49,817 nt of DNA from a virus. A program made the translations under genes and the position numbers. The notes below the pieces were generated by a model. That model was not told the origin of the DNA and made no database searches. It worked only from the letters and a program-made list of their open reading frames with translations. The first letter of the stretch is position 1. Each line of letters begins with the position of its first letter. Location of the stretch: positions 1 through 49,817 of the IMG/VR virus record IMGVR_UViG_3300042465_001782; one strand, 5' to 3'. Shown in pieces: positions 13,011-45,887 of the stretch.

Positions 13011-14969
13011 TTATGCCACTTGCGTTACTGTCACAATTACCGATGGTGTTGCCGGTCTAGTTGGTGATACCTGCGTTCCCTTATATTGCAATTGTCCGTT
13101 TGCCGTTGTTTTTGACCAATACAATTCTACATAACTTCCGGATGTAATTGGAGTTAAGAAGTTTAATGCTGCCACTTGAAATCCACCACCACTTACCTTT
13201 TCAATAGAGAAATCCGTATTTGAATTAGCTATATTAGAACCTGTCATAGCAAACCAAACAGAAAAATCACACACTTGGTTTGATGTGGTATGTAGTTGTG
13301 CTGAAAATTGAATATTGTATAATCCTGTATTTTGTGCGTAAATTCTAGTTGGAAATCCACTAGCATTATTGCCCACATAGATACCTTCAAATTCAGGTAC
13401 CGGAACTTCTAACTTCATAGCGTATGCCGTATTAGCAGAACCAGTTTGAGTTTCTAATGAAGCCCATTGTCCGTAATTGAATAACTTATTTCCCCATCTA
13501 TAAAAAGAATGCGGTGATTGCAAATTTAAATCACCATCTATTTGTAGTGAACCTGTAAATGAGCCACTTACATTAATTGAACCACTTAAAATGGTGTTAC
13601 CAATTAGAGTATTATTACCAATTTGAGTTGTAGAACCACTTATAGTTTGATTACCTAATACATTCAATGAACCAGTTATCTCCACTGCATTTTCTGCAGC
13701 GTATATAAGATTACTTCTATTACCACCATCAATTCCATTACCTACAATAAAAGCGGATTGTACGGGTGATACAAAATTATATTGACCTGTTACGTGTTGT
13801 CTTTGACCTAATGCTATTGTTTGATAACCTTCGGCATGTGAATATGAACCGGATGCTATTGTTTCTTGACCTTCAGCATGTGAGTAATCTCCTTTTGCTT
13901 GTGTAAAATCTCCTTCAGCGTGTGAGTAGTTTCCTATTGCTTTAGTAACACTTCCTTCAGCATGTGATTGGTCTCCGGTTGCTAGATTTCCCTCTAATCC
14001 GTGAATAAGAGAACCTGTTATAGTTTGATTACCATTAAATTGATTAGAACCGGTTGTTGCGAATGAACCACTATCTATTGAGAATCCAGAAGTTCCTGAT
14101 GTACCACTTGTACCACTACTACCACTTACTCCAGAAGTTCCTGATGTGCCAGAAGTTCCGCTTACTCCAGAAGTACCGGATGTGCCAGATGTTCCACTAC
14201 TACCACTTACTCCACTTGTACCAGAAGTTCCTGATGACCCACTAATTCCAGAAGTTCCTGATGTACCGCTACTCCCATTTTCTCCACTTACACCGCTCGT
14301 ACCACTTGTTCCTACACTACCACTTACACCGCTAGTCCCACTACTTCCACTAATTCCAGATGTGCCAGAAGTTCCAGATGTTCCACTACTTCCACTTACA
14401 CCGCTTGTACCACTACTACCATTTACTCCAGATGTACCGCTTGTACCCGATGTACCGCTACTACCATTTTCTCCACTTACTCCAGACGTTCCCGAAGTGC
14501 CACTTGTTCCAGATGTGCCGCTTGTACCATCACTACCACTTATACCACTAGTCCCACTACTTCCACTTACTCCAGAAGTTCCTGATGTACCACTTGTGCC
14601 ACCAGTTCCACTTACTCCAGATGTTCCACTACTTCCAAAGAATGTACCATTTAAACCTGATGTTCCAGATGAACCAGCCGTACCACCTGCTCCAGTTATA
14701 CCGTTTGAACCGGATGTACCCGATGTACCATTACTTCCTATTCCAGAAGTTCCCGATGTGCCGGTTACTCCGCTTGTTCCAGATGTTCCCGAAGTACCAG
14801 TATCAAAACCTCTTGGCCCTACCGGTCCTTGAACTCCTGCCGTTGCTATTATTATTTCCGGTTGTGAAGTTTGGACAGTTATTTCCGTTATCGCAGTTTC
14901 AATTGCAACATTTGTTTTTGGTATTTCAACTTGGACAGTTGTAATATTTTTTTCTATTTGTATTGACAT
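13011..14969 (-). CDS. Collagen-like fibre with SHAEG repeats
   Basis: A 652-aa protein in four parts. Residues 1-50 are a beta-rich attachment region ending VQGPVGPRG. Residues about 58-295 are almost unbroken Gly-X-Y triplets, mainly GTS, GVS and GSS, a collagen-like triple-helix pattern with Thr or Ser instead of proline. Next (about 330-400) come SHAEG repeats (four SHAEG units separated by about 14 residues), as in head domains of YadA-type trimeric adhesins. The C-terminus (about 470-652) is beta-rich and resembles a C1q/TNF-like jelly roll (GLYNIQFSAQLH). It is probably a trimeric virion fibre. The stop of the upstream gene is 2 bp away, so the two are coupled. The density of Ser and Thr makes it a possible glycosylation target. 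Confidence 0.85.
   Translation of the reverse strand: MSIQIEKNITTVQVEIPKTNVAIETAITEITVQTSQPEIIIATAGVQGPVGPRGFDTGTSGTSGTSGVTGTSGTSGIGSNGTSGTSGSNGITGAGGTAGSSGTSGLNGTFFGSSGTSGVSGTGGTSGTSGTSGVSGSSGTSGISGSDGTSGTSGTSGTSGTSGVSGENGSSGTSGTSGTSGVNGSSGTSGVSGSSGTSGTSGTSGISGSSGTSGVSGSVGTSGTSGVSGENGSSGTSGTSGISGSSGTSGTSGVSGSSGTSGTSGTSGVSGTSGTSGTSGVSGSSGTSGTSGTSGFSIDSGSFATTGSNQFNGNQTITGSLIHGLEGNLATGDQSHAEGSVTKAIGNYSHAEGDFTQAKGDYSHAEGQETIASGSYSHAEGYQTIALGQRQHVTGQYNFVSPVQSAFIVGNGIDGGNRSNLIYAAENAVEITGSLNVLGNQTISGSTTQIGNNTLIGNTILSGSINVSGSFTGSLQIDGDLNLQSPHSFYRWGNKLFNYGQWASLETQTGSANTAYAMKLEVPVPEFEGIYVGNNASGFPTRIYAQNTGLYNIQFSAQLHTTSNQVCDFSVWFAMTGSNIANSNTDFSIEKVSGGGFQVAALNFLTPITSGSYVELYWSKTTANGQLQYKGTQVSPTRPATPSVIVTVTQVA
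14082..14798 (-). repeat. Gly-Thr-Ser triplet repeat region
   Basis: About 79 consecutive Gly-X-Y codon triplets inside the fibre gene. Units such as GTSGTSGVSGSSGTSG recur with silent variation. Occasional breaks (NGS, ENGS, SDG) interrupt the pattern. The DNA is a degenerate 9-bp repeat, which should make length variation by slippage easy. Confidence 0.85.
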
Positions 14970-28174: not shown

Positions 28175-30967
28175 TTATTTATCAAAGAAAATTCCTAAAA
28201 TTTGATTTAGGGGTGCGAATGCACCTGTTAATTTGTAGGTGTTGCCACCATAGACAAATACAATACCCTCATTTGGTACAATTTTTTCAAATCCACCAAG
28301 TGCATTTAAGCGAGATAATTCTAATTTTAATTTTTCAATCTTCTTAGGGTCACCACTTGCTTTTACTTGCGATATTGTTGATTGTAAACGAGCTACCATT
28401 TGTCTTTTGGCACTATCAGGGTTTGCTGTAAGAACCGAGTCCATAAACGATAACACATCCGCACCAACTCCTAAAAATATCTCCTCAAATCTCATTAGAT
28501 TTTGCTTTCCTATTTTTTGTTGGTCTTGCTTATCAGTTTGTTCAGCCCATGCTCTTAATTTGTCATCGGTTATTTCTGCTATACGGAAACTCTTGTCACC
28601 AAAAGCCCATCTCTTTATTAATCCTATCTTTTGTTGATAATCTAACTTCTTAGCTTTCTTTTCTACAAAATTAGTCCACCAAGATTGATGATAATCAGCT
28701 ACACCATCCGAGTCAGCTAATCCAAATTCAGATTGTAGTTTAGAAATCATTCCCAAATACTTTCCTTGTAATTTAGAAAGATGTTCTGATTTAGGAAGTT
28801 TATTAATTGGAGGTCCTTGTATTGTGTACTTTGATTGAACATGTGCATTTACTTGCTTAATCATACCACCCAATATAGATGCCGCTTGTTGGTTCTCACC
28901 TACGATAGTACCATCGATATCATAATCAAACGTACCATGAAATACCAATAGGGGTTGATTATAAGGGATTACGTTTACAGAGGTTGGATATATTACTTCC
29001 AAGTTCATAAACGAACTACCATCTTTAAATATCTTCTTACGCTGAGGTTCGGATAGTGCTGCTATTGCTTTTGATAAATCCTGCATAGCGAAGTTATATG
29101 CATCGGTTAATCCACCTCTACCGGCAAACTTATCTGCTACCTGTCCTATTGTCATAGCACCAGCTCCTTTGTTCTTTAGGTGTGATTTGTTACGAGCTGC
29201 AACTAATCTACCATTTACCCAACTAACTGCCAATGCCTGTCCATCAGTCTTTTCTCTTGCCAATTCCAAATCACCATTTAATGCCCTTACCACAATTTGT
29301 TTTAAATCACCAAATGTAAGATTCATCTCAATATCAAATGGATGATTCATATGTCCATAAGCCCCACCTTCTAATAATATTGATTCTTTTATTGGTTTTT
29401 CAATTTTAGCTAATTTCTCATAATAGTTGATATCTTCCCATAAATGGTCCATAGCTATTTCAGTTGCAATACGAACATCAGTTGTATGTTCCATTTCAAC
29501 TTTAATACCATTCATTAATTTAGGTTTGATATATTCTGCTGCAAATTGGTTTGGGTCATAGTATCCTTTCTCATCATACTTCTTAGCCAAATCAATTAGC
29601 GTTTTACCTTTTGCCAAACCACCAGGAATAGTATCAGTATCTTCATCAATCTCCTCATATCCACTCATTCCGCTGTTGTTAAGTTTCTTACTATTTTTCT
29701 TAACATCTTTAGTATCAGGTGCACCATTAATATATCCACCCGGTAAACTTAAACCCACACCAGCTCCACCACCAAGTCCCATCTCATCTAATATAGAATC
29801 AAAATCTGAAACTATTTCTTTAATATCTTCTTTTGATATTATTGTATCTTTTTGATTATCAGGCAATTCCCAAAATCTTTTAGGTTTATCTATTGCTTTA
29901 TTTGGTTCGGTTTCTTGCCAGTCTTCTACTTTAAATGGGTCATCTGCTGGGTTCAATGTACTTTGTGTTACATTCTTTAATTTGTAATAAGCTTTTCTGA
30001 ATTGAGTTTCTGTATCTTTTGATTTTCCTCTACCTCTCATAGCGTCTGCTTTAGGTGTATGTAATTGAGTATATCCACCTTGTGCATACCAAGATTCTGG
30101 CTTTGCTGTGTTTAGTATTCTAGGTTGCCCATCTGCTACAAATGATGTATCAGGCTCATCTTGTCCACGAAATCCACTATTAGATGCCGTTTCTTTTAAC
30201 GTTTCTTTTTTAGGAATTCTGAATGTTGCTACCTTCTTACCATTGATTGTTGGCATTCCCCAATCATCAGTTCCTATTGTTTTTACAACTACTTTTTTAT
30301 TTTTAAATCTACCCATTAAGATAGTATCGCCAATTTTTACGTTTAGTTTAATTTCTTCGTTAATACATTCTTTTAAACTCTTTAACTTAAGAGTGATTAA
30401 TTTGAATATCTGAGAATCAAACTTTGGATATGCTTTTGTGAAGTTTTTCTTTCTATCATCCGAACTACCAGCACTTAACCAATAACGAACATCAGTTCCA
30501 CTAATAGGATTTGCCGTAGCAGGTGATGCGTACACATATCCTTTATCTAAATATCCTTGCTCTACCTTACCTTTATATGGAGTGAAGTACTTACCACTTA
30601 AACGATTTTCATCCTTTTCACCAACTACAACTATTAAACCAGTTGTATCAGAGTCATACTTCTTTAGTATTTCCTCAGGTGCATAAGGATTTTTAATATT
30701 GACAATTTTGTTTGATGGAATACCAAACATAGTTGTCATTATTACTTTCTTTTCCTTAAAATTAAATGGAGATTTCTTTGAATCGGTAACATTAGAAGTT
30801 CCGATATATACACTATCCTTACCGAATTTGCGTACTAAGTTATCATAAGTTGCGTAGTGTCCCTTATGAAATGGTTGAAAGCGGCCCGAATAGACAACAA
30901 CTACTTTGTCCATTTGAGCTGCTTCTCCCAATATTGTTTCTATTAAAAAGTTTGATAATTCGTTCAT
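28175..30967 (-). CDS. Nucleotidyltransferase / DUF5661 / ligase-like fusion
   Basis: A 930-aa, three-part protein. N-terminus: YSGRFQPFHKGH (H34, H37) and ISGTDVR at 155-161 are the HxGH and ISxTxxR motifs of NMNAT/cytidylyltransferase enzymes, which join a nucleotide to a small substrate. Middle (about 455-535): GKTLIDLAKKYD, NGIKVEMEHT and ATEIAMDHL match the DUF5661 pattern. C-terminus: EKTDGQ (K573) is motif I of covalent nucleotidyltransferases (DNA/RNA ligases, capping enzymes); E657 in MNLEVIYP, EGIVF (E900) and the following YKL fit motifs III/IV/V. A plausible job is nucleic-acid end repair supplied with nucleotide by its own front domain, but substrates are unknown. It starts with ATG after an A/T element. 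Confidence 0.8.
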   Translation of the reverse strand: MNELSNFLIETILGEAAQMDKVVVVYSGRFQPFHKGHYATYDNLVRKFGKDSVYIGTSNVTDSKKSPFNFKEKKVIMTTMFGIPSNKIVNIKNPYAPEEILKKYDSDTTGLIVVVGEKDENRLSGKYFTPYKGKVEQGYLDKGYVYASPATANPISGTDVRYWLSAGSSDDRKKNFTKAYPKFDSQIFKLITLKLKSLKECINEEIKLNVKIGDTILMGRFKNKKVVVKTIGTDDWGMPTINGKKVATFRIPKKETLKETASNSGFRGQDEPDTSFVADGQPRILNTAKPESWYAQGGYTQLHTPKADAMRGRGKSKDTETQFRKAYYKLKNVTQSTLNPADDPFKVEDWQETEPNKAIDKPKRFWELPDNQKDTIISKEDIKEIVSDFDSILDEMGLGGGAGVGLSLPGGYINGAPDTKDVKKNSKKLNNSGMSGYEEIDEDTDTIPGGLAKGKTLIDLAKKYDEKGYYDPNQFAAEYIKPKLMNGIKVEMEHTTDVRIATEIAMDHLWEDINYYEKLAKIEKPIKESILLEGGAYGHMNHPFDIEMNLTFGDLKQIVVRALNGDLELAREKTDGQALAVSWVNGRLVAARNKSHLKNKGAGAMTIGQVADKFAGRGGLTDAYNFAMQDLSKAIAALSEPQRKKIFKDGSSFMNLEVIYPTSVNVIPYNQPLLVFHGTFDYDIDGTIVGENQQAASILGGMIKQVNAHVQSKYTIQGPPINKLPKSEHLSKLQGKYLGMISKLQSEFGLADSDGVADYHQSWWTNFVEKKAKKLDYQQKIGLIKRWAFGDKSFRIAEITDDKLRAWAEQTDKQDQQKIGKQNLMRFEEIFLGVGADVLSFMDSVLTANPDSAKRQMVARLQSTISQVKASGDPKKIEKLKLELSRLNALGGFEKIVPNEGIVFVYGGNTYKLTGAFAPLNQILGIFFDK

Positions 30968-30998: not shown

Positions 30999-31391
30999 TT
31001 ATTGTTTTACTACTTTCATTGCACCAGCTGATTGTTGTGCTTGTTGTTCAGCTGCTTGTTGCTTTCTAGAAGGTGCACCTGGTTGATATTGAATAGTACC
31101 ATCTTGTAAATTAATTCTACCTTGTGGATACTTATCATCTAATGCATCTAATATTTCGTTTAATTCTAAACTAGTAGATTTAAGTTCATCTTCACCTTTT
31201 TGTAAAAATTCATCTAAATTAGTTAATTCATTTTGAATTTCTCTTTTTCTCATGTAGATTTGCCCGAATTCATTGATAATCTTTGCAGATTTTTGATTTA
31301 ATTCTGTGATAAGTTCGAATGTCTTTTCATCTAATTTAACAGCTTCAATTTCAACTGTTGTTTTTTGTGGAATGTTATCTAATCCTGCCAT
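30999..31391 (-). CDS. Coiled-coil protein, paralogue of the gene at 34824
   Basis: A 130-aa protein of heptad-like charged sequence (about 20-85). ELNQKSAKIINEFGQIYMRK and LNEILDALDDKYPQGRINL align with the 83-aa protein at 34824-35075 (ELNNRKNQLFIEVGQI; LNSILSELEQKYPSGEIDL); both end near a GT-(I/V)-x-Y motif. Here a Q/A-rich tail of about 25 residues is added (KQQAAEQQAQQS). The role is unknown; as short trimer- or dimer-forming helices flanking the sugar cassette they may be fibre accessory or chaperone proteins. Confidence 0.7.
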   Translation of the reverse strand: MAGLDNIPQKTTVEIEAVKLDEKTFELITELNQKSAKIINEFGQIYMRKREIQNELTNLDEFLQKGEDELKSTSLELNEILDALDDKYPQGRINLQDGTIQYQPGAPSRKQQAAEQQAQQSAGAMKVVKQ

Positions 31392-31441: not shown

Positions 31442-32590
31442 TTATAAGAATTTTTCCAATTCCTTTATTACCATTTCCGATGTTATTGATTTTGTACACT
31501 CAAACTGCCTATCCGTACCCTTATGGTCAGGGCACCAATTCCAATCCCCCGGATCCAATTTAAGTCTATTAAAGCATCCTTCGCATTTTCCTTTAGGTGC
31601 TGCAATTCTTATACAATCTTGCATTTCGGCCCAATCATATGAAAACCCACTAATTAATACAGTTGGAACGTTTAGTGACCAGCTCAACCAACTCAAACCA
31701 CTACCTATACCTATAAATGCTTTTGATTTTAACATTTCATCCATAACCAATTCCAATGGTCCGTTTGGATGCTGAACTATTCCTTTTGGTAATTTATTTC
31801 CCATATAATCATCACCTTCCTTTGAAAGTAATTTTACAGTATAACCTCTATTATTTAACCAATCAACGACATCTTGCCACCCAGCTGGGTTATTCCAAAA
31901 TTTAGATTGTGCAGTTCCAAATACACCAATACAAACTTGTTTAAGATTTTTATCTATGTATGGTTTTCTTTTTTTTATTTTAGGTCTAATTTCCGTATAT
32001 TCCAATCCCAAAATATCCGTGCACATTTTTTGCATTGTTTGGTGCTTTGGGTCTATTGGATTTTTTAAACCATTTATAGTACCATCTTCATTATAAAATA
32101 AACCAACACTATACATTGCATATAAATCAGTAACGTTTGTACCTGGAGCTACAAATTCAATTTCCTTATAATCTTGCTCAAACATATCATTCATAAATGT
32201 AGATGTTACTACTTTACAATTGTACTTCTTTCTAAACTCATCTATGTAAGCAACCCAAGATAATGAATCACCTAATGCTCTTGAATCCAATGAAATATAA
32301 ATTCTTTTATCAGTTGGATTGTAAATGTACTCATACCATAATTTATTATTTTCATAAATTAAAATTTTCCATTCTACAAAATATTCAATATTACACTTAC
32401 ACCAACAATTGTTTGCTATTGTAGTAGAAAATTTAATTTGGTTAGTTTTATTATCAATAAATTCAACTTTATATTCTGCCTTTTTACTTCCTTTTATTTC
32501 TAAAAAAGCACATTTTACAAAATTAATAATTACTTTATTATCAATATTTGCAATTGGATTTAGATTCTTTTTTAAATTATCATATATCAT
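31442..32590 (-). CDS. Autotransporter O-heptosyltransferase-like glycosyltransferase
   Basis: A 382-aa GT9-type glycosyltransferase close in pattern to bacterial autotransporter heptosyltransferases (TibC/AAH type), which add heptose to Ser on adhesin repeats. Features: ISLDSRALGDSLSWVAYIDE near 100; a Rossmann-like donor domain (CIGVFGTAQSKFWNNPAGW, FIGIGSGLSWLSWSLNVPTV); and C336-x2-C339-x13-C353-x11-C365 with DWNWCPDHKGT and RQFECTKSIT, the iron-binding four-cysteine finger of that family. I chose the ATG at 32590 because it overlaps the upstream stop as ATGA; a TTG three codons earlier is possible. Sugar donor and target are unknown. A phage fibre is a reasonable target. Confidence 0.85.
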   Translation of the reverse strand: MIYDNLKKNLNPIANIDNKVIINFVKCAFLEIKGSKKAEYKVEFIDNKTNQIKFSTTIANNCWCKCNIEYFVEWKILIYENNKLWYEYIYNPTDKRIYISLDSRALGDSLSWVAYIDEFRKKYNCKVVTSTFMNDMFEQDYKEIEFVAPGTNVTDLYAMYSVGLFYNEDGTINGLKNPIDPKHQTMQKMCTDILGLEYTEIRPKIKKRKPYIDKNLKQVCIGVFGTAQSKFWNNPAGWQDVVDWLNNRGYTVKLLSKEGDDYMGNKLPKGIVQHPNGPLELVMDEMLKSKAFIGIGSGLSWLSWSLNVPTVLISGFSYDWAEMQDCIRIAAPKGKCEGCFNRLKLDPGDWNWCPDHKGTDRQFECTKSITSEMVIKELEKFL

Positions 32591-34767
32591 GTATTCCAAG
32601 TTTTAACTGTTAAATCTAATAATGAATATCCTTCCGCTTGTTTACTATACATTTTATTAGTTGTATATCTTGGTCTTGGGTGATTGTGAAAAACGTGATT
32701 AAACCAAAGGTCACCAACATCCCAACCACAATCTATAAGTCTATCTGCCCACCATTGCTTTTCTCTATTAGGAATTAAATAACAATGTGCCAAGTCTTGA
32801 TTTGCAGCAGTCTTTGAAAATAACTCATCTATTTTTTCTTTACTTCTTGATGGGTTATCTGCAAATGAAATGAATGGTACATTATCTCTTTCTGAAAGGA
32901 AACAAGCTCTATGTATAATTTCAACAAATTCTTCCAAACCAGTATAAATAAAAGCATCAGCTTCAAATATTAAAGTGTAATCAAAGTTTTCAGTATCCAT
33001 CGTTTCCAACGCTCCTCTATGTGCTAAATAACATCCATAGTGTCTACCAGTCATCCAACCCAAACCAGCACCAGGGTATAATTCTCCCGGCTTATTATCT
33101 TTACTTATATGCTCAGGTCTTCTACAATTTTCAGCTGGCGCAAATCCTTCATATACTTCATTAACAATTGGTTGATATACCATTCCATATTTTTCTAATT
33201 GCTTAAGAGATTGAATACTAACCATCTCTCTCATATCATCAGGTCTAGTCAATAAATGTTTTACCTGAATACGAGGTTTCTTACGTCTCCAATTTCTAAA
33301 TCCAAGAATACATTGATTGTAAAAGAATTCATCTACTGCTCTAGTAACACCAGGAAAGAAACTTCCACCATAATCATCTCCACTAATAGTTCCACCAGGT
33401 TTTACTTTGTTGTACCAATAATGAATATCATCATTAACATCTTCATAACTATGCCCAGCATCTAACATTATATAATCAATACTACTATTACTAAATTGAT
33501 TAGCTGCATTATGTGATGTATCTTTAATTATTTCAAACGAACCATAGTTTTCTGAAAGTACTGTGTTATCTACAAATTCATAAAATATATCTCCATTAAA
33601 TGCTCCAACTATGTTTTGGTGCAACTCCTCATCATCAGTTCCCTTAAATGTATCAATGGTTATAAACTTAATATCTTTTTTAGATTCTTTTATTTTGCTT
33701 GCTAAATAATTTGTAGATTTACCGAACCAAGTACCAACCTCAACGAAAGTATCTCCATTTTTTGATTCTTCAACAAATTGATTATACAATTCATCAAATG
33801 CAAACCAACCGGGAATATAATTGAAATCAGGCTTAAGCGTATCTAATATAATTTTTTTTGTTGCTTTTAAATCATCATCAATATAAGTTACTAATGAATT
33901 ATTATCATAGGTATCTAAATATGTATGTAACTTTCTAAATATAGAAGGTAATTGATAACTCAACGCCTCTTTAATTGATAACGGATTTAATTCTAATTTA
34001 GAACTAAAATAAAACATATCACTTGCTGCGTAAAATGTATCAACATCATTACGTTCTCCCCATATAACACAATTTTCAGGTTTGTGTTTCATAAGAGGTC
34101 CCCAATAATGTTCAAAGTTTCCAGCCTGATTTCCTACGAAATGAAATTTAATTTTGTATTTTTCTAATTGAGTTGCTAATGCAAATATTTCACCTTGATT
34201 TTTACCTGGTGCAAATAAACCAACATTAAGAATATGTTTCCAATCGGATTCAAATCCTAATTCTTTTTGTGCCGCTTCCTTATCAAATTTATATTCCTCA
34301 ATTGGATATTCCCATAATTGGGTTTCAACTCCAGTATGCTCAAACTTTTGTCTACTCCATTCGGATACTAAAATGTATCTATCAGGGTGATAATTTATTT
34401 CAGATGGATTGGTGAATGAACCATGTGTAGATGCTACAATAAAATAATTTCTATCTTTTGTAAAAATCCCATCTAATATAAATGGAGCTAAATCAAATTG
34501 TGGGATTTCCTGAAAATGTATAATATCAGGTTTAAACTGATTTATTACATTTAGTATTTCCGATTTATCATCTCCCAACGTGTGAACTTCTACTAATGAT
34601 TTTATTCTATTTTTTTGAACCACAAAAGCATCACCACCACTATTGTTTATTTCAACAACTTGGATATCAAAATCATTTAAAAAATGTTTTACCTGCTTAT
34701 ATAGATATTGTGGTTGCCCTCCAGTAGATAAGTGGGGTGCAATATAAAGTAACTTCTTTTTAGACAT
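32587..34767 (-). CDS. GT4 / methyltransferase / GT25-like fusion enzyme
   Basis: A 726-aa protein with three enzyme domains. Residues 1-310: GT-B glycosyltransferase of GT4 type (LYIAPHLSTGGQPQYLYKQV, IIHFQEI, HILNVGLFAPGKNQGE, FYFSSKLELNPLSIKEAL). Residues about 325-490: class I SAM methyltransferase (FVEVGTWFGKSTNYLASKI, E343; IDYIMLDAGHSYEDV). Residues about 500-726: GT25-like glycosyltransferase (YGCYLAHRGALE, then LIFEADAFIYTG with D604 as the likely metal site). It could assemble a short methyl-capped sugar. Stop overlaps the heptosyltransferase-like start (ATGA), so the two are co-translated and probably act together. It has its own host-type promoter. Confidence 0.85.
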   Translation of the reverse strand: MSKKKLLYIAPHLSTGGQPQYLYKQVKHFLNDFDIQVVEINNSGGDAFVVQKNRIKSLVEVHTLGDDKSEILNVINQFKPDIIHFQEIPQFDLAPFILDGIFTKDRNYFIVASTHGSFTNPSEINYHPDRYILVSEWSRQKFEHTGVETQLWEYPIEEYKFDKEAAQKELGFESDWKHILNVGLFAPGKNQGEIFALATQLEKYKIKFHFVGNQAGNFEHYWGPLMKHKPENCVIWGERNDVDTFYAASDMFYFSSKLELNPLSIKEALSYQLPSIFRKLHTYLDTYDNNSLVTYIDDDLKATKKIILDTLKPDFNYIPGWFAFDELYNQFVEESKNGDTFVEVGTWFGKSTNYLASKIKESKKDIKFITIDTFKGTDDEELHQNIVGAFNGDIFYEFVDNTVLSENYGSFEIIKDTSHNAANQFSNSSIDYIMLDAGHSYEDVNDDIHYWYNKVKPGGTISGDDYGGSFFPGVTRAVDEFFYNQCILGFRNWRRKKPRIQVKHLLTRPDDMREMVSIQSLKQLEKYGMVYQPIVNEVYEGFAPAENCRRPEHISKDNKPGELYPGAGLGWMTGRHYGCYLAHRGALETMDTENFDYTLIFEADAFIYTGLEEFVEIIHRACFLSERDNVPFISFADNPSRSKEKIDELFSKTAANQDLAHCYLIPNREKQWWADRLIDCGWDVGDLWFNHVFHNHPRPRYTTNKMYSKQAEGYSLLDLTVKTWNT

Positions 34768-34823: not shown

Positions 34824-35075
34824 TTAATAGCTAACAGTACCTTCTAATAAATCAATTTCTCCACTTGGATATTTTTGCTCCAATTCAGATAAAATTGAAT
34901 TTAATTCACCAACAGTTGTATCAAATTGCATTTCTCTCTTATCTAAGATATTTTTTAATTCTCTAATTTCTAAGTGAATTTGTCCAACTTCTATAAATAA
35001 TTGGTTTTTCCTATTGTTTAACTCTTTTATACTAGCAACAACAGATTCTTCTAATTTTTCTATTTTATTTTCCAT
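34824..35075 (-). CDS. Short coiled-coil protein, paralogue of the gene at 30999
   Basis: An 83-aa, almost entirely helical protein (KLEESVVASIKELNNRKNQL; EIRELKNILDKREMQF) ending YPSGEIDLLEGTVSY. It matches the core of the 130-aa coiled-coil protein at 30999-31391, and the two genes bracket the glycosylation cassette. It follows the S74 tail fibre gene by 36 bp. Possible fibre assembly or capping role; not established. Confidence 0.7.
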   Translation of the reverse strand: MENKIEKLEESVVASIKELNNRKNQLFIEVGQIHLEIRELKNILDKREMQFDTTVGELNSILSELEQKYPSGEIDLLEGTVSY

Positions 35076-35111: not shown

Positions 35112-38100
35112 TTAAGAACCAATTTTTGATTCTAAATCTCTAACTTTTTGTGTTAATTCTTGCACTGCCTTCCACAATACAAATACCAATTCTCCTTTAG
35201 CGATACCAGATGTCATCCATTTTTTTGGTCCATCTACGTTGTCTGGGTCATCAAACCAATCATAATCCACAAATTCCTCCAATCCAGCTGATTCTAATTC
35301 CTCCGCAATAACCCCTATTTGTTGAGGTCTATGTTCCTTCTCAGCATCAACTTTCCAATAGAATGTTCTGATAGGTGTATTATTTACAGCTTCTAATAAT
35401 GATGGGTGTTCCCAATTTATTATTTCTTCTTTATATCTTCTTGCTGAAGTATTTCTACCAAGTTTCCATTGTGATAATGAAAACTCCATATCTCTAATAG
35501 TACCACCCAAATCACCCGAACCAGGAATATTTACCATTTGAACGGTAGGTCTTGGTGTGCTTCCAACGGTGTGTGTTGTTATTGCACCACTATTAGCGCC
35601 AGGATTCCAAGAAATAACACCAGTACCCATTTCAATATTGTTATTATTCATAGCAATTTTTCCAGTACCAACTTCTATATTAATAGCAGTGCCAGTTGTA
35701 GTTCCAGATAATTGAAGCAATGTATTTGTTGTATCGCCAATAAGTGATATAAATCCTTTTCCATCTAATATTGGTGTAGATACTGCATCATCCCTTCTTA
35801 ATCTAATGTATCTATTAGGAGATGATGCAATTTGAATACCTGTATTTGTTAATTCTACAACGTTTACGTTTGCAGCTATATCAATAGTTGGATGGCTCGC
35901 ATATATGTTTATATCCAATTGACTAGAACCACCACCACTCGCATTATAAGTGTATCCTTGAACAATATAGAATAGTTTAAGAGTATAAGTTGTTGAGTTT
36001 ACATTTGGTGCAGTGAATACAAAGTTTCCAGTATATCCATAAATATTTGCATAACTATCATCCGCACCACCTTGCCAAGTAGCAGAACCTATCGTTACTT
36101 CAGAAACTAAAGTTCCAGAAAAGTCCGTTCCTAGTGTGGCCCCTTGATAAATTCTATATCCCCAAGACAATTCCAAATTACCATCTCTATTAAAAGCATC
36201 AATACCACCTGCGCCCGGCCATAGTACGTTACTATCTGTGTAAGTACCAGCAACAAGGTCAAAATTCACCCCATCACTTTCTAAATTTATATTTACACCA
36301 ATAGAAGCTACTGGACTAGTGTATGATGAAATCGAGTTTCCTGTTCCAGATATACTGGTCCCTGCCGATGCCAAATTTGTCAATTCACCATAGTTTACTT
36401 TAAGACGTGTTGTACCAGCTTCTTTAATAGCAATACCAGGAAGACCAGGGTCAAGGAAAATTCTACTATTACCATCTCTAAGAATATTATTATCAACTGT
36501 CCAACTTCCAATAGAACCAGCGGTGGCCTCAATTCTTCCATATATGGTAGCGTTTGATACTGTTAATCCAGTAGATGATAACGAAAAATTTGGTCCAGTT
36601 AAACTACCAGTTCCATTTGCATCAGCTGTCATTGAAATTGCCACAGTTCCAGTACCAACTGTTACAGTATCTCTGAATGTACCACTTGCTCCACTTAAAT
36701 TTCCTTTAAAGAAAGCATTACCAGAGGTATCAATATAAAAATTCTTTGAGTGAATAGAACCAGCTGCTGCTAATGTAAGACCTGAGCCCGGATTATATCC
36801 ACTAAGATTTTTAGTACCACTATAAATTGCATCAGATGCTAATTCCCAACCACCAACAGATCCAGCATTATGAGCATCACCATTATCAAATGTACCAAGC
36901 TTACTACCATCATTTGCAGTTGCTATGTTTTTAATTCGTATATTTCCTGCAATTTCTAATGCAGTACCATCCCATTTCAAATATCTACTACCTGCCGCAT
37001 TTACTAAAGAAAATCTAGGTTTATATGTACTTGGAGTTTCACCACTACCACTATATATACCCAACCAAACGCCAGGACTCTCATATCCGATATTAGCATA
37101 TTGACCTATCGCCATATACGGGTCAGGTCTACCTCCAGCTAATACAATGTTTGCAAAAGCACTACCAGAATTGTTACCAATATTAATTGTATTTTTTACA
37201 AATGATTCTTCAAATATTGCAATCTTAGCTGCTACAAAGAATTCTTCTTTTCCTAAAAATTGCCAATATGCGTTATCAGTACCAGCAGTAGGTGATTGTG
37301 CACCAACAATAGTTCCAGATTTATTATAAGTCGTTGGACCACTACCACTTATTGCTGCATAATATGTTGTTGGATTTGTACCATATATTACCGCATCTCT
37401 CCTTTTATTTTGAGTTTCAACCGAACCACTATAATTAGTTGCATTGTTCCATTCACCCCTCATTACAATACCAGGTCCAGTTGCTCCTTCATATTGAAGT
37501 GAAAGTGATTGCGTTTTATAAATCGTACTTTCAGGCCTAATCATAATACTACTAGAAACGTATTCACATTCTACTTGATATACAATTTCAGCATTTGGAT
37601 TTGTTTCAGGCGATGTCCACGAAACTATATTTGGCATTCTTGCAGGTACTCCAGTAACATAACTTCCAGGTAACCAACCATTTGCCAATGTTATGTGAGA
37701 TGATTTTGAATATATTGAAATTCTACATTGATTAGGATATCCAGTTACACCATATGCATCAGTTGTTGCATTTATAAATCCAGAAGGTTTATTAGTAAGT
37801 TCTGTATTACCTCTATAAACTCTAATACCCGTTCCAGTATTTGAAGTTGTAAATTCTCCAGATACTTTATAAATTGCTGATGAGTTTTCATTATCCAGTT
37901 TAACATCATATGGAGCTGGAGGTGTAAATTGTACAGCTATTGATTGTGTTACAAATTGAGTCTGTCTAGCCAATGGTCTTACTAATGTATTTGTTGATGA
38001 TGAATCTCCTTCAAAATCAACTCTATACACAATTTGTCCAGATGTATTTGTAGCTGGCGCATCCCAACTAATTATATCTCCAATTGAAGCAGGATTTGAT

Positions 38101-41100
38101 GATGGGAACTTTGGTGGAGTTCCTCCAGTTAATCCAATCCAAGCAGATTTTGAAAATATAGATGCGGATGAATATCCCAATACCCCAATCGGGTCATTAT
38201 TAAAATCTAAATCATTTGGGTCATTTGGTAATGGTAATGGATTTGCATTTATCAATTGTTGATTACCATTAAATGTGGTAATCTTCATACCAGTTCCAGC
38301 AAATTGCTTTGTCCATAAATCTGCTGTTATAGTTGTACTTTCATTTGATGCTACCAATTTATATGCATCAGCTCCAGCCTTTATACCAGATATTGTTAAT
38401 TGAGCCTCCGCCCTATATGGATTTAATGTTGGTGATACATATGGGTTACCATCAGTTAATTTAACTTTAAATGTTTTTATTACATCAGGACCTACATCAT
38501 TATAGTTTACATCCGGTAATGTAAATGTTACGGGGTTTGTACTACTATCTCCTTGAAATGTAACTTCCCCAGACTCAGAACCATCAGGAGCTATATCAGA
38601 TATTGTAAGAAATACTCTATCAGCTGATGATGTTGTATTAAATGCAGTTGCAGATAATATGATTGGTTGGGATGATGCCGCTGATACTCTACCATTTCTA
38701 TCATAGTTTACCGTATACGAAGATGCTTTAAAATCAATACTACGAGCCTTTGGCGGAGTTACATTTTTTGTAAATGTTTGTGTACGAGTAAAAATAGATG
38801 AAGTTGGTAAATGCCCAGCTCCCAATGCGTAAGGATATACTTGAATTGTATAAAGTGCACTTGCCGAAACATATGGATAATCAAATCTATTATAAGTCAT
38901 CGTTCCAGTCAATCCAGACAAAGATGAAGATGCTAATGAACCAGTTCGTATATTCCAAATACTACCACCCCTAGTTTCAATTGAATTAATTGTATAAGTA
39001 CCTTTTCTAGCATCAGCGTTTGCAAAAGATTCTGTTGTTACTAATTTTAAAAAATCAGCTCCTTCTTTTATTTGTATTGTTGTATTAGCTGCAGAGTATC
39101 CAACTGGGGTAACAAATCCAACTTCATCGGCCGTTAATGCTACTGATGTTGGCGATATTACTATTTGAATTGGTGGTGCACCTTCCAATATTTTCGTATA
39201 ATTAACAACAACACTTGCCGTATATATTGATGATGTATAGTATGGATGAATTATTAATGGATATTCAATACTTCCACTTAATTGAGTAAAGTTTGAAGAT
39301 TGAGATACAATTAACGATGCAGTATATGGTACACCAAATGATGATGTAAAATGTACATTACCTGCTTTAATTTCTTTTTCTATTATAGATGCAGTTGCTA
39401 TATGGAATGTACCATGTGTATCCAAATTATTCAATACCCCAGCACTAGCACTAAAAGCAAGATATCTAGAACCTTGCTTTAATTTAATATCAGTAATAGA
39501 TGGTGTATAATCATTAACTATACCTCTTGAATTAGCTCCAAGTGTAATTGATATTGGACTTACTTCAAATACAATACTTTCATCTCCTTGTTTACCTTCA
39601 GGTACAATCGTAAATGTTTTATCTAAACTAACTGATGCCGATGTCCAAGGCTCAGTATATGTAAATGTTAATGTTAAGTTTTTAGTTTGGTTTGCCGTAG
39701 TTCTTACGTTTCCGCTTACTATTTGAGATGGTATTATATTTTTATTATCATCTTTTGCAACAACTGTTATAGTTGGGTCTAAACTTTGAGTATGATAATA
39801 TAACCAATATTCAGGAATCCAATCTTTGTTAATTGACATTGATGGATAAATCTGAAATGATGCTGTTACAAATGCGATTTCAGATGCGGCAGTTCCTCTT
39901 TTTGCAAAAGATGCCGTAGCGAATCCAAATGCTGGTTTAAATATTGTTTCTGTTCTTGGATTTATTGTGAATGAATCTGCATTATATGTTACCACACCAC
40001 TATCCAATCCATCTTGCAAATCCTCCAATATAATAGATGCTACAACCGAACCAGATGTTTCGTATGCAGGTCCAGATGCCGCAGATCCTGATGACATTAT
40101 ATATATTGTTCTTCTAAAATCAATCGAGTCTCTATTAAAAGTTGCGTTATAATTTATCTCACCACTTCCCAATGAACCGGTAGTTAATCCGTATATGTAT
40201 CTACTTGAAGATGCGTATGCTAAGTTTACAAATTTTTCAGCTCCATCTGCAGAACGTGATATGATGTGTAGTTGTTTATCTGGCCATCCCTTTTCAGGTT
40301 TAGTTGTACTACTTAATTCAATATCATTTACACCATCGATACGAATAGCTTGAACTTCTAAAGAGGCAGTACTACTATTTCTAATTTGAGTTCCTCTATA
40401 AGGTCTAATCAAATAGTTTACACCACCAAATCCATCTAATACTCTTGTGAATATTACTGTATCAGTAAACCCTTCAACTTCTCCTGTAATTTTAACTAAT
40501 TGAACAGTCTTATCTAATCTAGAACCAGTAAAATTACCAACCGTCATTGTTGGTGCATCTGATGTAATATCACTTAATAAGCCAGGATATCTTTGTCCAG
40601 TAAATGATGCAGTGTAATCAGAATAAACTAATTCATTTCCGTCAAAATCAAAAGATTGTGATGTGTATGTAACCGAACCTGTTAATAAGTTTTTTGTTAC
40701 AGTAAATCCAACTACTGTTGGTGGTATTGGGCTAGAACCAGAATCAAATTGAAATGATAATGACCTAGGATTAAATACAAGTCCTTTTCGTATTGTTTGT
40801 AAATTACCACCATTAAATGTTTTAGTTTCTTCAACCAAAACAGGAATATAATTGTTATTTATATCGTAAAATTCAAATCTATATACAAAAGTTTCTACCG
40901 GCAGAATTCTAGGAACAGATTGTATAAATGTAATTTCATCTGGAGAAAATGCTGTTTCTTGTGATGCTTTTAAACTAACCTCAGATATATGCCAATCATT
41001 TCCACTTACATCAAAATATAATCTAGCATTATCTATTTGTTCAGCTTTTATATTTTCAGTAATAATTTGTTTTTGAAGTAAAGCATTTTGAGTATTTAAA

Positions 41101-42488
41101 TTTACTATACTTTGTTTAACTTGAAGTGTAGATGGAGAGCCATTTATAATCGTTTGTCTAGAACCACTTATGTATGCTTCAATGTAATTATTAACATTAC
41201 CTACTGCTTCTTTCCTAACATTAAAATTTAAAGTATATTCAATACCTTCATTTATATTTAAAGATTTTGTTGTAAAGAATTTTTGAGTTCCAACAGTACT
41301 ATTTAATTTTATAGAATCAAATAAAAATGTTTGATTAAATGCAGTTACTAAATTATTCGATGATGTTAGCCAATATTCTTTAAAATTACTATTATCAAAT
41401 AATCCATAATTTTCTTGGTTTTTTGTAGTAGATGCCAAATCAACTAAAAGCTCATTTGATTCTAATTGTATTTCTTGAACGAATTGAAAATCGGATAAAT
41501 CGGTTGTTGATTTTCTAAATATTTTAACTCTAGCAGCATCTCCAACAAATGTTGTTAAATCCGCTATTGTTATTTTTGCAAAAGAACCAGTCAATGCTGT
41601 TTTTAAATTATCAACTCCTTCTGTATAATTAAATGTAGATGTGTATGGTTCTGACTCTATACTTACAACAACTCCATTTTCTGTATATGGTGGTTGTATT
41701 AATATTTCTCTTGAATTTACTATTTGAGTTACTAAAGGTCTATATGGTATAAGTGGAGCTGCGCTTCCAAGTGGTGAAGTTGCATCTGGTACTAATAAAT
41801 TTGTTTCCAAATAAGTCCCAACCATAGAAGCTGTCCAAAATGAATTACCAACGGTTTCTAAAATATATGTAGTTGGGGATGTATAATTCTTTAATGAAGT
41901 TCCAGCAACTGGGTTTTGTGCAATTCCATTTACAATACCACTTTGTGTTTTTGGTGCAACTACATTTGAAAATATTGGTTTAACTATTTCAGTAATATTA
42001 ACTTCAGGTCTTTTATAAAATCTTACCTTATCTTCGTTTGCAAGTAATCTATTAACTTTGAATTCCCTTTCCCACTTAACATTATAAATTCCGGCCCACT
42101 CAGCTGGGATTTGTTGTGTTATCCCATCAGCATCTATATATGTTTTTAATTCACCCAATATAGTAATTTTTGCATTACCAATTGGAGTATCTTCATATAT
42201 GTAAACAGCTATAACTTTTGATAATCCTTCATAATATTCAGGAACACCATTACCAGGTTCAAAATAAATTGGGTTTCCTTCAACATCTAATATTTCTATT
42301 TTTATATCAGTACTTTCTTTCAAATACTCAGAACCTTCAATTAGAAATCCATTCTTACCTCCAGTAAATGATTCTTTGAATTCAGTAATTCTAAAATACT
42401 GCGAATTTGGATTAGAATCTAAAACAAATGTTTGGTATATTGTTAAAGGTTGCGTTAGATTATCTGCGAATTTTTTTATTCTTGCCAT
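35112..42488 (-). CDS. Long tail fibre with S74 chaperone domain
   Basis: A 2458-aa protein. The N-terminus (1-170: LTQPLTIYQTFVLDSNPNSQ, then KVNRLLANEDKVRFYKRPEV) is an attachment domain seen in other large-phage fibres. The long middle (about 200-2000) is beta-rich, with repeating ASxSGSL/TYTSS sequence and Ig-like spacing (VSPTSVALTADE, EVSPISITLGANS). The C-terminal 111 residues match peptidase S74 (NTSARRYKEEI, PQQIGVIAEELE, KAVQELTQKV): an intramolecular chaperone that helps trimerise the fibre and cuts itself off, with S2348 as the likely cleavage residue. It is probably the receptor-binding fibre. The neighbouring glycosyltransferases could act on it. Confidence 0.9.
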   Translation of the reverse strand: MARIKKFADNLTQPLTIYQTFVLDSNPNSQYFRITEFKESFTGGKNGFLIEGSEYLKESTDIKIEILDVEGNPIYFEPGNGVPEYYEGLSKVIAVYIYEDTPIGNAKITILGELKTYIDADGITQQIPAEWAGIYNVKWEREFKVNRLLANEDKVRFYKRPEVNITEIVKPIFSNVVAPKTQSGIVNGIAQNPVAGTSLKNYTSPTTYILETVGNSFWTASMVGTYLETNLLVPDATSPLGSAAPLIPYRPLVTQIVNSREILIQPPYTENGVVVSIESEPYTSTFNYTEGVDNLKTALTGSFAKITIADLTTFVGDAARVKIFRKSTTDLSDFQFVQEIQLESNELLVDLASTTKNQENYGLFDNSNFKEYWLTSSNNLVTAFNQTFLFDSIKLNSTVGTQKFFTTKSLNINEGIEYTLNFNVRKEAVGNVNNYIEAYISGSRQTIINGSPSTLQVKQSIVNLNTQNALLQKQIITENIKAEQIDNARLYFDVSGNDWHISEVSLKASQETAFSPDEITFIQSVPRILPVETFVYRFEFYDINNNYIPVLVEETKTFNGGNLQTIRKGLVFNPRSLSFQFDSGSSPIPPTVVGFTVTKNLLTGSVTYTSQSFDFDGNELVYSDYTASFTGQRYPGLLSDITSDAPTMTVGNFTGSRLDKTVQLVKITGEVEGFTDTVIFTRVLDGFGGVNYLIRPYRGTQIRNSSTASLEVQAIRIDGVNDIELSSTTKPEKGWPDKQLHIISRSADGAEKFVNLAYASSSRYIYGLTTGSLGSGEINYNATFNRDSIDFRRTIYIMSSGSAASGPAYETSGSVVASIILEDLQDGLDSGVVTYNADSFTINPRTETIFKPAFGFATASFAKRGTAASEIAFVTASFQIYPSMSINKDWIPEYWLYYHTQSLDPTITVVAKDDNKNIIPSQIVSGNVRTTANQTKNLTLTFTYTEPWTSASVSLDKTFTIVPEGKQGDESIVFEVSPISITLGANSRGIVNDYTPSITDIKLKQGSRYLAFSASAGVLNNLDTHGTFHIATASIIEKEIKAGNVHFTSSFGVPYTASLIVSQSSNFTQLSGSIEYPLIIHPYYTSSIYTASVVVNYTKILEGAPPIQIVISPTSVALTADEVGFVTPVGYSAANTTIQIKEGADFLKLVTTESFANADARKGTYTINSIETRGGSIWNIRTGSLASSSLSGLTGTMTYNRFDYPYVSASALYTIQVYPYALGAGHLPTSSIFTRTQTFTKNVTPPKARSIDFKASSYTVNYDRNGRVSAASSQPIILSATAFNTTSSADRVFLTISDIAPDGSESGEVTFQGDSSTNPVTFTLPDVNYNDVGPDVIKTFKVKLTDGNPYVSPTLNPYRAEAQLTISGIKAGADAYKLVASNESTTITADLWTKQFAGTGMKITTFNGNQQLINANPLPLPNDPNDLDFNNDPIGVLGYSSASIFSKSAWIGLTGGTPPKFPSSNPASIGDIISWDAPATNTSGQIVYRVDFEGDSSSTNTLVRPLARQTQFVTQSIAVQFTPPAPYDVKLDNENSSAIYKVSGEFTTSNTGTGIRVYRGNTELTNKPSGFINATTDAYGVTGYPNQCRISIYSKSSHITLANGWLPGSYVTGVPARMPNIVSWTSPETNPNAEIVYQVECEYVSSSIMIRPESTIYKTQSLSLQYEGATGPGIVMRGEWNNATNYSGSVETQNKRRDAVIYGTNPTTYYAAISGSGPTTYNKSGTIVGAQSPTAGTDNAYWQFLGKEEFFVAAKIAIFEESFVKNTINIGNNSGSAFANIVLAGGRPDPYMAIGQYANIGYESPGVWLGIYSGSGETPSTYKPRFSLVNAAGSRYLKWDGTALEIAGNIRIKNIATANDGSKLGTFDNGDAHNAGSVGGWELASDAIYSGTKNLSGYNPGSGLTLAAAGSIHSKNFYIDTSGNAFFKGNLSGASGTFRDTVTVGTGTVAISMTADANGTGSLTGPNFSLSSTGLTVSNATIYGRIEATAGSIGSWTVDNNILRDGNSRIFLDPGLPGIAIKEAGTTRLKVNYGELTNLASAGTSISGTGNSISSYTSPVASIGVNINLESDGVNFDLVAGTYTDSNVLWPGAGGIDAFNRDGNLELSWGYRIYQGATLGTDFSGTLVSEVTIGSATWQGGADDSYANIYGYTGNFVFTAPNVNSTTYTLKLFYIVQGYTYNASGGGSSQLDINIYASHPTIDIAANVNVVELTNTGIQIASSPNRYIRLRRDDAVSTPILDGKGFISLIGDTTNTLLQLSGTTTGTAINIEVGTGKIAMNNNNIEMGTGVISWNPGANSGAITTHTVGSTPRPTVQMVNIPGSGDLGGTIRDMEFSLSQWKLGRNTSARRYKEEIINWEHPSLLEAVNNTPIRTFYWKVDAEKEHRPQQIGVIAEELESAGLEEFVDYDWFDDPDNVDGPKKWMTSGIAKGELVFVLWKAVQELTQKVRDLESKIGS

Positions 42489-42580: not shown

Positions 42581-42754
42581 ATGAAGAAGTACGCAATGAT
42601 ACAAATAGATGCTGAAATACATCAAGCATTAAAGGAATTTTGTAAAGAGAAAGGATATAAGATAAACGGGTTAGTAGAAACCCTTATAAAAGAAAAGGTG
42701 CAGTCTTTAAACAAGACCACACCTAAAAATGTATTACCGGTTGTTAGAAGTTAA
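42581..42754 (+). CDS. Ribbon-helix-helix-like small DNA-binding protein
   Basis: A 57-aa gene and the only one on the plus strand. MKKYAMIQIDAEIHQALKEF is a beta strand followed by a helix, and CKEKGYKINGLVETLIKEKV gives a turn and second helix. This is the strand-helix-helix plan of Arc/CopG repressors. It is divergent from the fibre gene (92-bp shared gap) and its last 11 bp overlap the 3' end of the recombinase gene, convergently. Direct repeats lie just before its ATG. Likely a transcriptional regulator, perhaps of the fibre promoter or of itself. Family is recognised from pattern, not from a search. Confidence 0.75.
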   Translation: MKKYAMIQIDAEIHQALKEFCKEKGYKINGLVETLIKEKVQSLNKTTPKNVLPVVRS

Positions 42755-45700: not shown

Positions 45701-45887
45701 TTACCAATTCAGGACTCATTTCCAATTTAGCATGAGCTATATCTCCAGCTAAGTAGATAATAGAATCGTCCGTTCCTCTTTTTTTGATTTCTTCGAACAT
45801 TGAGTAAAATACTTCTCTAAACTCTTTGTGTCTTTTGATATTACGAATGTGTATATCCGCAATGTGATAAATTCTCTTTAACCTCAT
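42744..45887 (-). CDS. Mre11-Rad50 (gp47-gp46) fusion recombination nuclease
   Basis: A 1047-aa protein joining two subunits that are separate in T4 (gp47 and gp46) and in bacteria (SbcD and SbcC). Residues 1-330: metallophosphoesterase nuclease with D11-x-H13, GD49, GNHD 83-86 and FHGPVD motifs. From about 380: an SMC-type ATPase with Walker A PNAQGKSS (K408), long coiled coils, a zinc-hook C723-x2-C726, an ABC-signature-like SGMEKFISGLAIR, and Walker B FLVIDEGFGTLD (D989, E990). It processes DNA ends for recombination-dependent replication. The start overlaps the primase stop (ATGA). Confidence 0.95.
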   Translation of the reverse strand: MRLKRIYHIADIHIRNIKRHKEFREVFYSMFEEIKKRGTDDSIIYLAGDIAHAKLEMSPELVSEISWLFTECNKLCPTIVIAGNHDCNMNNSDRLDVLTPIVDALKLPNLTYLKDTQVYGIGDVDFAVFSIFDNKDNWPKADTLFGNKKIALFHGPVDNSTTDVGYVVSSRHFTTEIFDGYDLALLGDIHKRQEMISPSGCKVVYAGSLVQQNFGETLDKHGFLVWDLDTMTYEEVDIQNDYGYYTLDVDGGIVPDVTDMPLYPRLRVRITNTDTADTKRMMADITAKYGVEDFTIIRTDTFNKKKTNDREARLEVDSIADINHQNSLIGEYIERMMPFVTKEDLAGIEKINRDINSRIQPSELQRNISWKPIKFDFSNMFSYGERNVINFDKINGLMGLFAPNAQGKSSLFDAISFCLFDKCSRAYKASAIMNNRKSDFHCQLEFSVDGVIYGIRREGRTINKGKNVKVDVDFWREGDSGRESLNGTERRDTNQVIETYVGRYEDFIMTALSLQANNALFIDKSQSERKDLMAQFMGLDIFDKLYDTATNDIKDVNALIRNFRKTDFTSELAQKENDLNSKREEYDSLDAEKLELETRKGDLEEQIVTLSQQIVPIQGNLNIDTLNSKLKTIEGDLTTWGGTKYKLVEKHTEAKELVREAKEMVDSKVTINGTDIGEAQIQLNLVKGQIRDTLHQIELLEQSIETNKEKLSHLAEHEYDPNCNFCMNNVFVKDANETEKKLGEQGNQLEILNILHGALITQLGELAGVEDQFRQWKQWTDEHSRLITLRERLEADGKTAESRIELLQHQLETAKADIKRYNDNVETITNNTSLINQIETLKEEKQGIETQISNVNKKMLKLMSEVGATKTYIDNMVAKMEEVKELESKNQLYTFYLDAVKKDGVPYELISKALPAIENEVNNILGQVVDFSISMDTDGKNINARIVYEDQEWALEMCSGMEKFISGLAIRVALINICNLPRPNFLVIDEGFGTLDADNLSSLFMMMQYLKTQFDFIWVISHLEQMRDIVDGLIEIKKIDGFSKINF

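What the first reader, a model, noticed from the sequence alone, without database searches (positions are those of the whole stretch)
31442..34767. Phage-encoded glycosylation cassette with an autotransporter-heptosyltransferase-type enzyme
The downstream gene has the full four-cysteine finger (C336, C339, C353, C365) and the DWNWCPDHKGT / RQFECTKSIT context of TibC/AAH enzymes, which put heptose on Ser of bacterial adhesin repeats. It is translationally coupled to a GT4-methyltransferase-GT25-like fusion. Together they could build a methyl-capped glycan on a protein. The neighbours are a long S74 tail fibre and, further away, a Ser/Thr-rich collagen-like fibre, which makes virion glycosylation plausible. 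Such a coupled set in a myovirus structural region is not something I know as described.
Basis: partly seen in the sequence, partly recalled or inferred. Interest (0 to 1): 0.78.

Follow-up and report, generated by a model that had tools for sequence, protein, structure and literature searches.

The report
Phage heptosyltransferase for collagen-like fibres
This freshwater phage carries a TibC-type sugar-transfer enzyme coupled to a second sugar-transfer and methylation enzyme; relatives in hundreds of phages and some bacteria sit with repetitive Gly-Thr-Ser proteins and with genes that make the heptose donor, so these phages probably coat a collagen-like fibre with heptose, which would give one use for the unexplained heptose-making enzymes of viruses.

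Summary
The 382-aa product of 31442-32590(-) passes NCBIfam's curated cut-off for TibC/AAH heptosyltransferases (261.6 bits against 200), and its AlphaFold model matches TibC at TM 0.86. All four iron-finger cysteines, the catalytic Asp, Thr226, Lys230 and Trp305 are kept. Its start overlaps (ATGA) the stop of a GT4 + methyltransferase + GT25-like fusion. The pair is conserved, in the same place, across a clade of freshwater T4-like phages, and related enzymes occur in at least 589 viral stretches. (1) In many relatives the gene is followed, with overlapping stop/start, by HldC-like and HldA-like genes of ADP-heptose synthesis; these look ancestral and lost in the window's branch. (2) The partner is a (Gly-Thr-Ser)n collagen-like protein: the closest bacterial homologues lie beside one in 10 of 11 loci, against 0 of 7 for classical AAH-type enzymes. 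17 of 38 viral contigs with (GTS)6 repeats encode the enzyme, against 0 of 30 with Pro/Gln/Lys collagens. The likely acceptor in the window is the 62-triplet (GTS)n fibre at 13011-14969, not the adjacent S74 fibre. Activity, donor and virion glycans are untested.

The parts
31442..32590 (-). TibC/AAH-type (TIGR04414) heptosyltransferase, 382 aa: N-terminal beta-barrel, GT-B catalytic domain, four-cysteine iron finger; D108 (TibC D110), T226, K230, W301 (TibC W305), C336/C339/C353/C365 kept; V282 at the position of TibC R286
32587..34767 (-). GT4 + Methyltransf_24 + GT25-like fusion, 726 aa; stop overlaps the next start (ATGA)
13011..14969 (-). Collagen-like fibre, 652 aa, longest uninterrupted (GXY) run 62 triplets, 82% Ser/Thr in X/Y, dominated by GTS; proposed acceptor
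35112..42488 (-). Long S74 (endosialidase chaperone) tail fibre, 2458 aa, beside the cassette in most relatives; alternative acceptor, no GXY repeat
34824..35075 (-). 83-aa coiled-coil protein between S74 fibre and cassette, related to the 130-aa protein downstream; role unknown
30999..31391 (-). 130-aa protein after the heptosyltransferase; hldC-like and hldA-like genes lie between the two in many relatives, and neither is in this window

Best explanation
The cassette is a late-region protein O-glycosylation module of a freshwater T4-like phage. The 382-aa enzyme, from a divergent phage/methanotroph group of the TibC/AAH family, transfers heptose from an NDP-heptose (most likely ADP-D,D-heptose) to Ser/Thr of Gly-Thr-Ser repeats in the phage's collagen-like fibre (13011-14969). 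The coupled GT4-methyltransferase-GT25-like protein then probably extends and O-methylates the glycan. Many relatives make part of the donor pathway themselves with HldC-like and HldA-like genes in the same operon; this lineage appears to have lost them and would rely on the host. Shown: family, predicted fold, catalytic residues, coupling, conserved synteny, selection, the hld operon in relatives, the association with (GTS)n proteins. Inferred: activity, donor, acceptor, order of sugars, presence of glycan on virions, and its benefit (stability, protection or adsorption).
For: Enzyme: TIGR04414 261.6 bits against 200; AlphaFold model pLDDT 88.7, Foldseek TibC 4rap/4rb4 TM 0.86, E 1.9e-32, then WaaC and other GT9; D110, T226, K230, W305 and four Cys in 80/80 clade proteins. 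Conserved unit: pair in the same order in the relatives that cover it; GT4 homologues fused to or beside the enzyme in distant phages; one 1226-aa ORF with GT4 and TibC domains at the same site in isolated phage Mel-JY01. Donor: hldC-like genes start mostly at -1/-4 of the enzyme's stop; both hld genes in 46 loci and hldC alone in 19, of 170 with readable downstream sequence (not dereplicated); best NCBIfam matches are rfaE_dom_II and rfaE_dom_I; present in the sister group of the window's clade, so probably ancestral. Acceptor: 10 of 11 phage-like bacterial enzymes lie within about 155 bp of an exported (GTS)n protein, against 0 of 7 classical ones (nominal p 2.5e-4), while the four large neighbours of classical ones that were scanned are TIGR04415 strand-loop-strand autotransporters; 17/38 (GTS)6 viral contigs encode the enzyme against 0/30 with Pro-Gln/Lys collagens (p 6e-6); terminase relatives without the enzyme, including the complete Flavobacterium phage immuto genome, have no GXY run.
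Against: TibC Arg286, which contacts adenine and is needed for activity there, is Val here in all but one clade protein (Leu in that one), so the nucleotide of the donor is open. The window has no hld genes, and no gmhA was found in 13 records. The hld proteins score below their families' equivalog cut-offs. The (GTS)n fibre lies about 16.5 kb from the cassette, and in distant phages the distance test is only moderate (Fisher p 0.003). A 133-kb clade contig shows no GXY run (it may be a fragment). 21 of 38 (GTS)6 contigs show no enzyme (fragments possible). No biochemical evidence.
Confidence: 0.68

Rival explanations
1. The cassette glycosylates the adjacent S74 tail fibre, or another virion protein, rather than the collagen-like fibre.
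For: The S74 fibre is next to the cassette in most of the clade, and phage modification genes often sit beside their target (general knowledge).
Against: S74-fibre homologues are replaced or missing in distant loci that keep the enzyme. The bacterial homologues have no phage fibre but do have (GTS)n partners. (GTS)n content predicts presence of the enzyme.
Confidence: 0.15
2. The enzymes modify the host surface (LPS or capsule) during infection, for example to block superinfection, as LPS-modifying phage genes do.
For: GT9 and GT25 families include LPS enzymes; a phage heptosyltransferase has been read this way in a wastewater huge phage (PMC10747093).
Against: The enzyme is closer to TibC than to LPS heptosyltransferases and keeps the TibC-specific beta-barrel, thumb and iron finger. 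It lies in the late structural region. Its bacterial relatives pair with exported repeat proteins.
Confidence: 0.1
3. The enzyme is a (GTS)n glycosyltransferase, but its donor is not ADP-heptose (for example another NDP-heptose or another NDP-sugar).
For: Arg286, the adenine contact that excludes guanine in TibC (PMC4358343), is not conserved in most of this group. Some heptose nucleotidyltransferases also make CDP- and UDP-heptose (PMC11573728).
Against: The hldC-like genes lack the Arg of the STTR5 promiscuity motif and their best family is heptose-1-phosphate adenylyltransferase.
Confidence: 0.2

Closest known systems
TibC / AAH bacterial autotransporter heptosyltransferases (BAHT, TIGR04414; PDB 4rap, 4rb4)
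   Same: Family score above cut-off, predicted fold TM 0.86, beta-barrel, hairpin thumb with a hydrophobic tip pair (YM for FV), iron-finger cysteines, catalytic Asp, phosphate-binding Thr and Lys, Trp
   Different: Phage-encoded, in the late region; Val for Arg286 and Gly for Pro300; coupled to other glycan enzymes; partner is a (GTS)n collagen-like protein, not a strand-loop-strand autotransporter
HldA/HldC (split RfaE/HldE) ADP-heptose synthesis and the viral NDP-heptose enzymes of Tang et al. 2024 (as described in PMC11573728, PMC11461863)
   Same: The genes downstream of the enzyme in relatives have these as best families
   Different: Below equivalog cut-offs, absent from this window; here they have a linked user enzyme, whereas those papers call the role in viruses unsolved
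Mycobacteriophage virion glycosylation (cited in PMC12619734)
   Same: Phage glycosyltransferases acting on virion proteins
   Different: Targets there are capsid and tail tube C-termini; here a different enzyme family and, by inference, a collagen-like fibre
Mimivirus collagen glycosylation by L230 (from memory, not tested)
   Same: Virus-encoded glycosylation of a viral collagen-like protein
   Different: Hydroxylysine-linked there; Ser/Thr-linked heptose proposed here

Membership tests
TIGR04414 / BAHT (TibC, AAH) | Curated family score | tested here: met
   261.6 bits against 200
TIGR04414 / BAHT (TibC, AAH) | TibC fold with N-terminal beta-barrel and GT-B domain | tested here: met
   Predicted model, TM 0.86 over about 373 columns; strands 19-89
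TIGR04414 / BAHT (TibC, AAH) | Four iron-finger cysteines | tested here: met
   80/80 clade proteins; metal binding itself not testable
TIGR04414 / BAHT (TibC, AAH) | Catalytic Asp110 and ligand-binding Thr226, Lys230, Trp305 | tested here: met
   80/80
TIGR04414 / BAHT (TibC, AAH) | Arg286 contacting adenine | tested here: not met
   Val in 80/80, aliphatic or Thr/Ala in most of the wider group; not part of the family's curated definition, but it lowers the claim about the donor
TIGR04414 / BAHT (TibC, AAH) | Hydrophobic thumb tip (Phe265-Val266) for dodecamer assembly | tested here: inconclusive
   Tyr-Met pair in a thumb three residues shorter
TIGR04414 / BAHT (TibC, AAH) | Strand-loop-strand (TIGR04415) autotransporter partner | tested here: not met
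   No TIGR04415 in the window proteins scanned; so it is filed as a TibC-family enzyme, not as an autotransporter heptosyltransferase
TIGR04414 / BAHT (TibC, AAH) | Heptose transfer to Ser | not testable with these tools
   needs biochemistry
GT4 (PF00534) | Curated cut-off | tested here: met
   34.9 against 26.4; Foldseek BshA and other GT4
Methyltransf_24 (PF13578) | Curated cut-off | tested here: met
   67.4 against 26.3; substrate unknown
GT25 (PF01755) | Curated cut-off | tested here: not met
   17.2 against 24; profile search of the PDB gives only GT25 and procollagen galactosyltransferases but at E 0.06-0.29; hence 'GT25-like'
HldC / HldA (TIGR02199 / TIGR02198), genes of relatives | Equivalog cut-offs | tested here: not met
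   Best-matching families but 90-101 against 181.5 and 91-117 against 345; hence 'HldC-like' and 'HldA-like'
Collagen repeat (PF01391), 13011-14969 | Curated cut-off | tested here: met
   103.1 against 27.2

The most novel reading that the evidence does not exclude
A large, phage-rich group of TibC-like enzymes has a different acceptor from the known family: collagen-like (GTS)n triplets instead of autotransporter strand-loop-strand repeats. Many phages carry, in one operon, donor synthesis (HldC/HldA-like), the priming heptosyltransferase and glycan-extending and methylating enzymes: a dedicated viral O-heptosylation pathway that builds a methylated, heptose-rooted glycan on a triple-helical fibre, possibly with relaxed nucleotide specificity of the donor.
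Probability: 0.45. Interest if true: 0.88.

Novelty: new variant of a known kind. Interest (0 to 1): 0.8.

Why it matters
The authors who reported functional NDP-heptose enzymes in viruses say that why viruses make heptose is unsolved, and suggest looking at neighbouring genes (PMC11573728). Here such genes are stop/start-coupled to a protein heptosyltransferase in many phages, which gives a concrete, testable answer. It also proposes a new acceptor class, (GTS)n collagen-like repeats, for a well-studied enzyme family, with bacterial pairs simple enough to test in the laboratory, and points to widespread glycosylation of fibres in freshwater phages, which could affect adsorption and particle stability.

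Tried and rejected
LPS heptosyltransferase reading: the TibC family fits far better. The cytidylyltransferase-like gene 28175-30967 as the ADP-heptose synthase of the cassette: its N-terminus is of the NMN-adenylyltransferase type. gmhA in 13 phage records: none. TIGR04415 repeats in the window's fibres: none. Arg286 loss as the mark of the (GTS)n group: not strict, since one bacterial (GTS)n-linked enzyme (L634) appears to keep Arg. Distance of enzyme to collagen gene within phage contigs: only moderate, so I relied on the bacterial and presence/absence tests. STTR5 promiscuity motif in phage HldC: not found. Literature for phage autotransporter-type heptosyltransferases or heptosylated collagen-like proteins: nothing on point.

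Full report
What is there. The window is one 49.8-kb viral record carrying T4-like structural genes on the minus strand: terminase, portal and Gp23-type capsid protein. The closest isolated relatives by terminase are Flavobacterium phages (58%) and Microcystis phage Mel-JY01 (56%), so the host is not settled. Between an S74 tail fibre (35112-42488) and a cytidylyltransferase-like gene lie the two genes of the finding. Their overlap is ATGA.

The enzyme. 31442-32590(-) passes the curated cut-off of TIGR04414, aligns with TibC at 2e-47, and its AlphaFold model (pLDDT 88.7) has TibC as its first structural match, TM 0.86, followed by WaaC and other GT9 enzymes. From the TibC structure paper (PMC4358343) I took the functional residues. 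The catalytic base, Thr226, Lys230, Trp305 and the four iron-finger cysteines are invariant in 80 clade proteins, but Arg286, which contacts the adenine, is Val in all 80. The hairpin thumb keeps a hydrophobic pair, Tyr-Met instead of Phe-Val. dN/dS is 0.11-0.20. I therefore take it as a functional TibC-family glycosyltransferase with an open question about the nucleotide of its donor.

The upstream protein. GT4 and Methyltransf_24 pass their cut-offs; the C-terminal part is GT25-like below cut-off. A profile of that part finds only GT25 enzymes in the PDB, weakly, and has a conserved E-x-D motif.

Spread and synteny. In distant phages the enzyme is often fused behind, or next to, GT4-type domains, with other glycosyl- and methyltransferases. 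In Mel-JY01 one ORF, annotated as FkbM methyltransferase, carries GT4 at its N-terminus and the TibC-like domain at its C-terminus. Such fusions support joint action.

Donor genes. In many relatives the next two genes are HldC-like and HldA-like: best families rfaE_dom_II and rfaE_dom_I, though below equivalog cut-offs. Their starts mostly overlap the preceding stops. On a tree of 91 rows the hld-bearing rows include the sister group of the window's clade, so the genes are probably ancestral and were lost several times, also in the window's branch. The authors of the work on viral NDP-heptose enzymes state that their role in viruses is unsolved.

Acceptor. The window's 13011-14969 fibre has an uninterrupted run of 62 GXY triplets with 82% Ser/Thr, mostly GTS. 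I tested the link in three ways. First, bacteria: in 301 genomes of the Methylobacter order and 369 of the Polaromonas class, enzymes above cut-off fall in two score groups. The AAH-like group (about 655 bits, 7 loci) has no GXY neighbour, and the four large neighbours that I scanned are strand-loop-strand, AIDA-type autotransporters with 15-39 repeats. The phage-like group (about 298-327 bits, 11 loci) adjoins a small, apparently exported (GTS)n protein in 10 cases; near the 11th lies a protein with a similar N-terminus and a poly-Ser tract. The loci are partly from related species, so the p of 2.5e-4 is nominal. Four of these genomes hold only one to three GXY12 loci in 2.6-5 Mb. Second, viruses: of 38 contigs with (GTS)6 repeats 17 encode the enzyme, against none of 30 contigs with Pro-Gln/Lys collagen repeats, p 6e-6; contig sizes were not exactly matched and habitat was not controlled. 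Third, terminase relatives without the enzyme have no GXY run. Physical distance inside phage contigs is only a moderate signal.

Mechanism. Shown: enzyme family, predicted fold, residues, coupling, synteny, selection, linked donor genes in relatives, association with (GTS)n proteins. Inferred: heptose transfer to Ser/Thr of the GTS fibre, then extension and methylation by the fusion. Rivals are modification of the S74 fibre, of host LPS, or use of another donor.

Judgement. A new variant of a known kind: a TibC-family enzyme by sequence and fold, in a group with a different partner class, in phages, with donor genes attached in relatives. The search of open-access full texts found no description, but most subscription papers and preprints are not held.

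Noticed in passing
window 42744-45887(-): One 1047-aa ORF joins an SbcD-like nuclease (residues 4-342) and an SbcC-like ATPase (311-1046), i.e. what is gp47 and gp46 in T4 as a single protein.
   Followed up: no
window 28175-30967(-): Protein with an NMN-adenylyltransferase-like N-terminus and a long remainder; its length varies from about 780 to 1490 aa between relatives.
   Followed up: partly
window 34824-35075(-) and 30999-31391(-): Two small coiled-coil proteins that flank the cassette are related to each other and conserved in the clade; function unknown.
   Followed up: no
window 3-9500(-): Fibre-like protein of at least 3166 aa with long internal repeats, running off the window's edge.
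   Followed up: no
L082:4750-8430 (PP395634.1): GT4 / TibC-like fusion annotated as 'methyltransferase FkbM'; annotation should be revised.
   Followed up: yes
L168, L171, L172, L176 (genome contigs): TibC-like enzymes in MAGs of Rickettsiaceae, Flavobacteriales, Bacteroidetes and a Pacearchaeota may be phage contigs binned into MAGs (L172 carries a terminase match; the L176 protein lacks the cysteine finger).
   Followed up: partly
L617, L618: One methanotroph genome (G182) has two classical AAH-type enzymes, each beside a giant strand-loop-strand autotransporter.
   Followed up: partly
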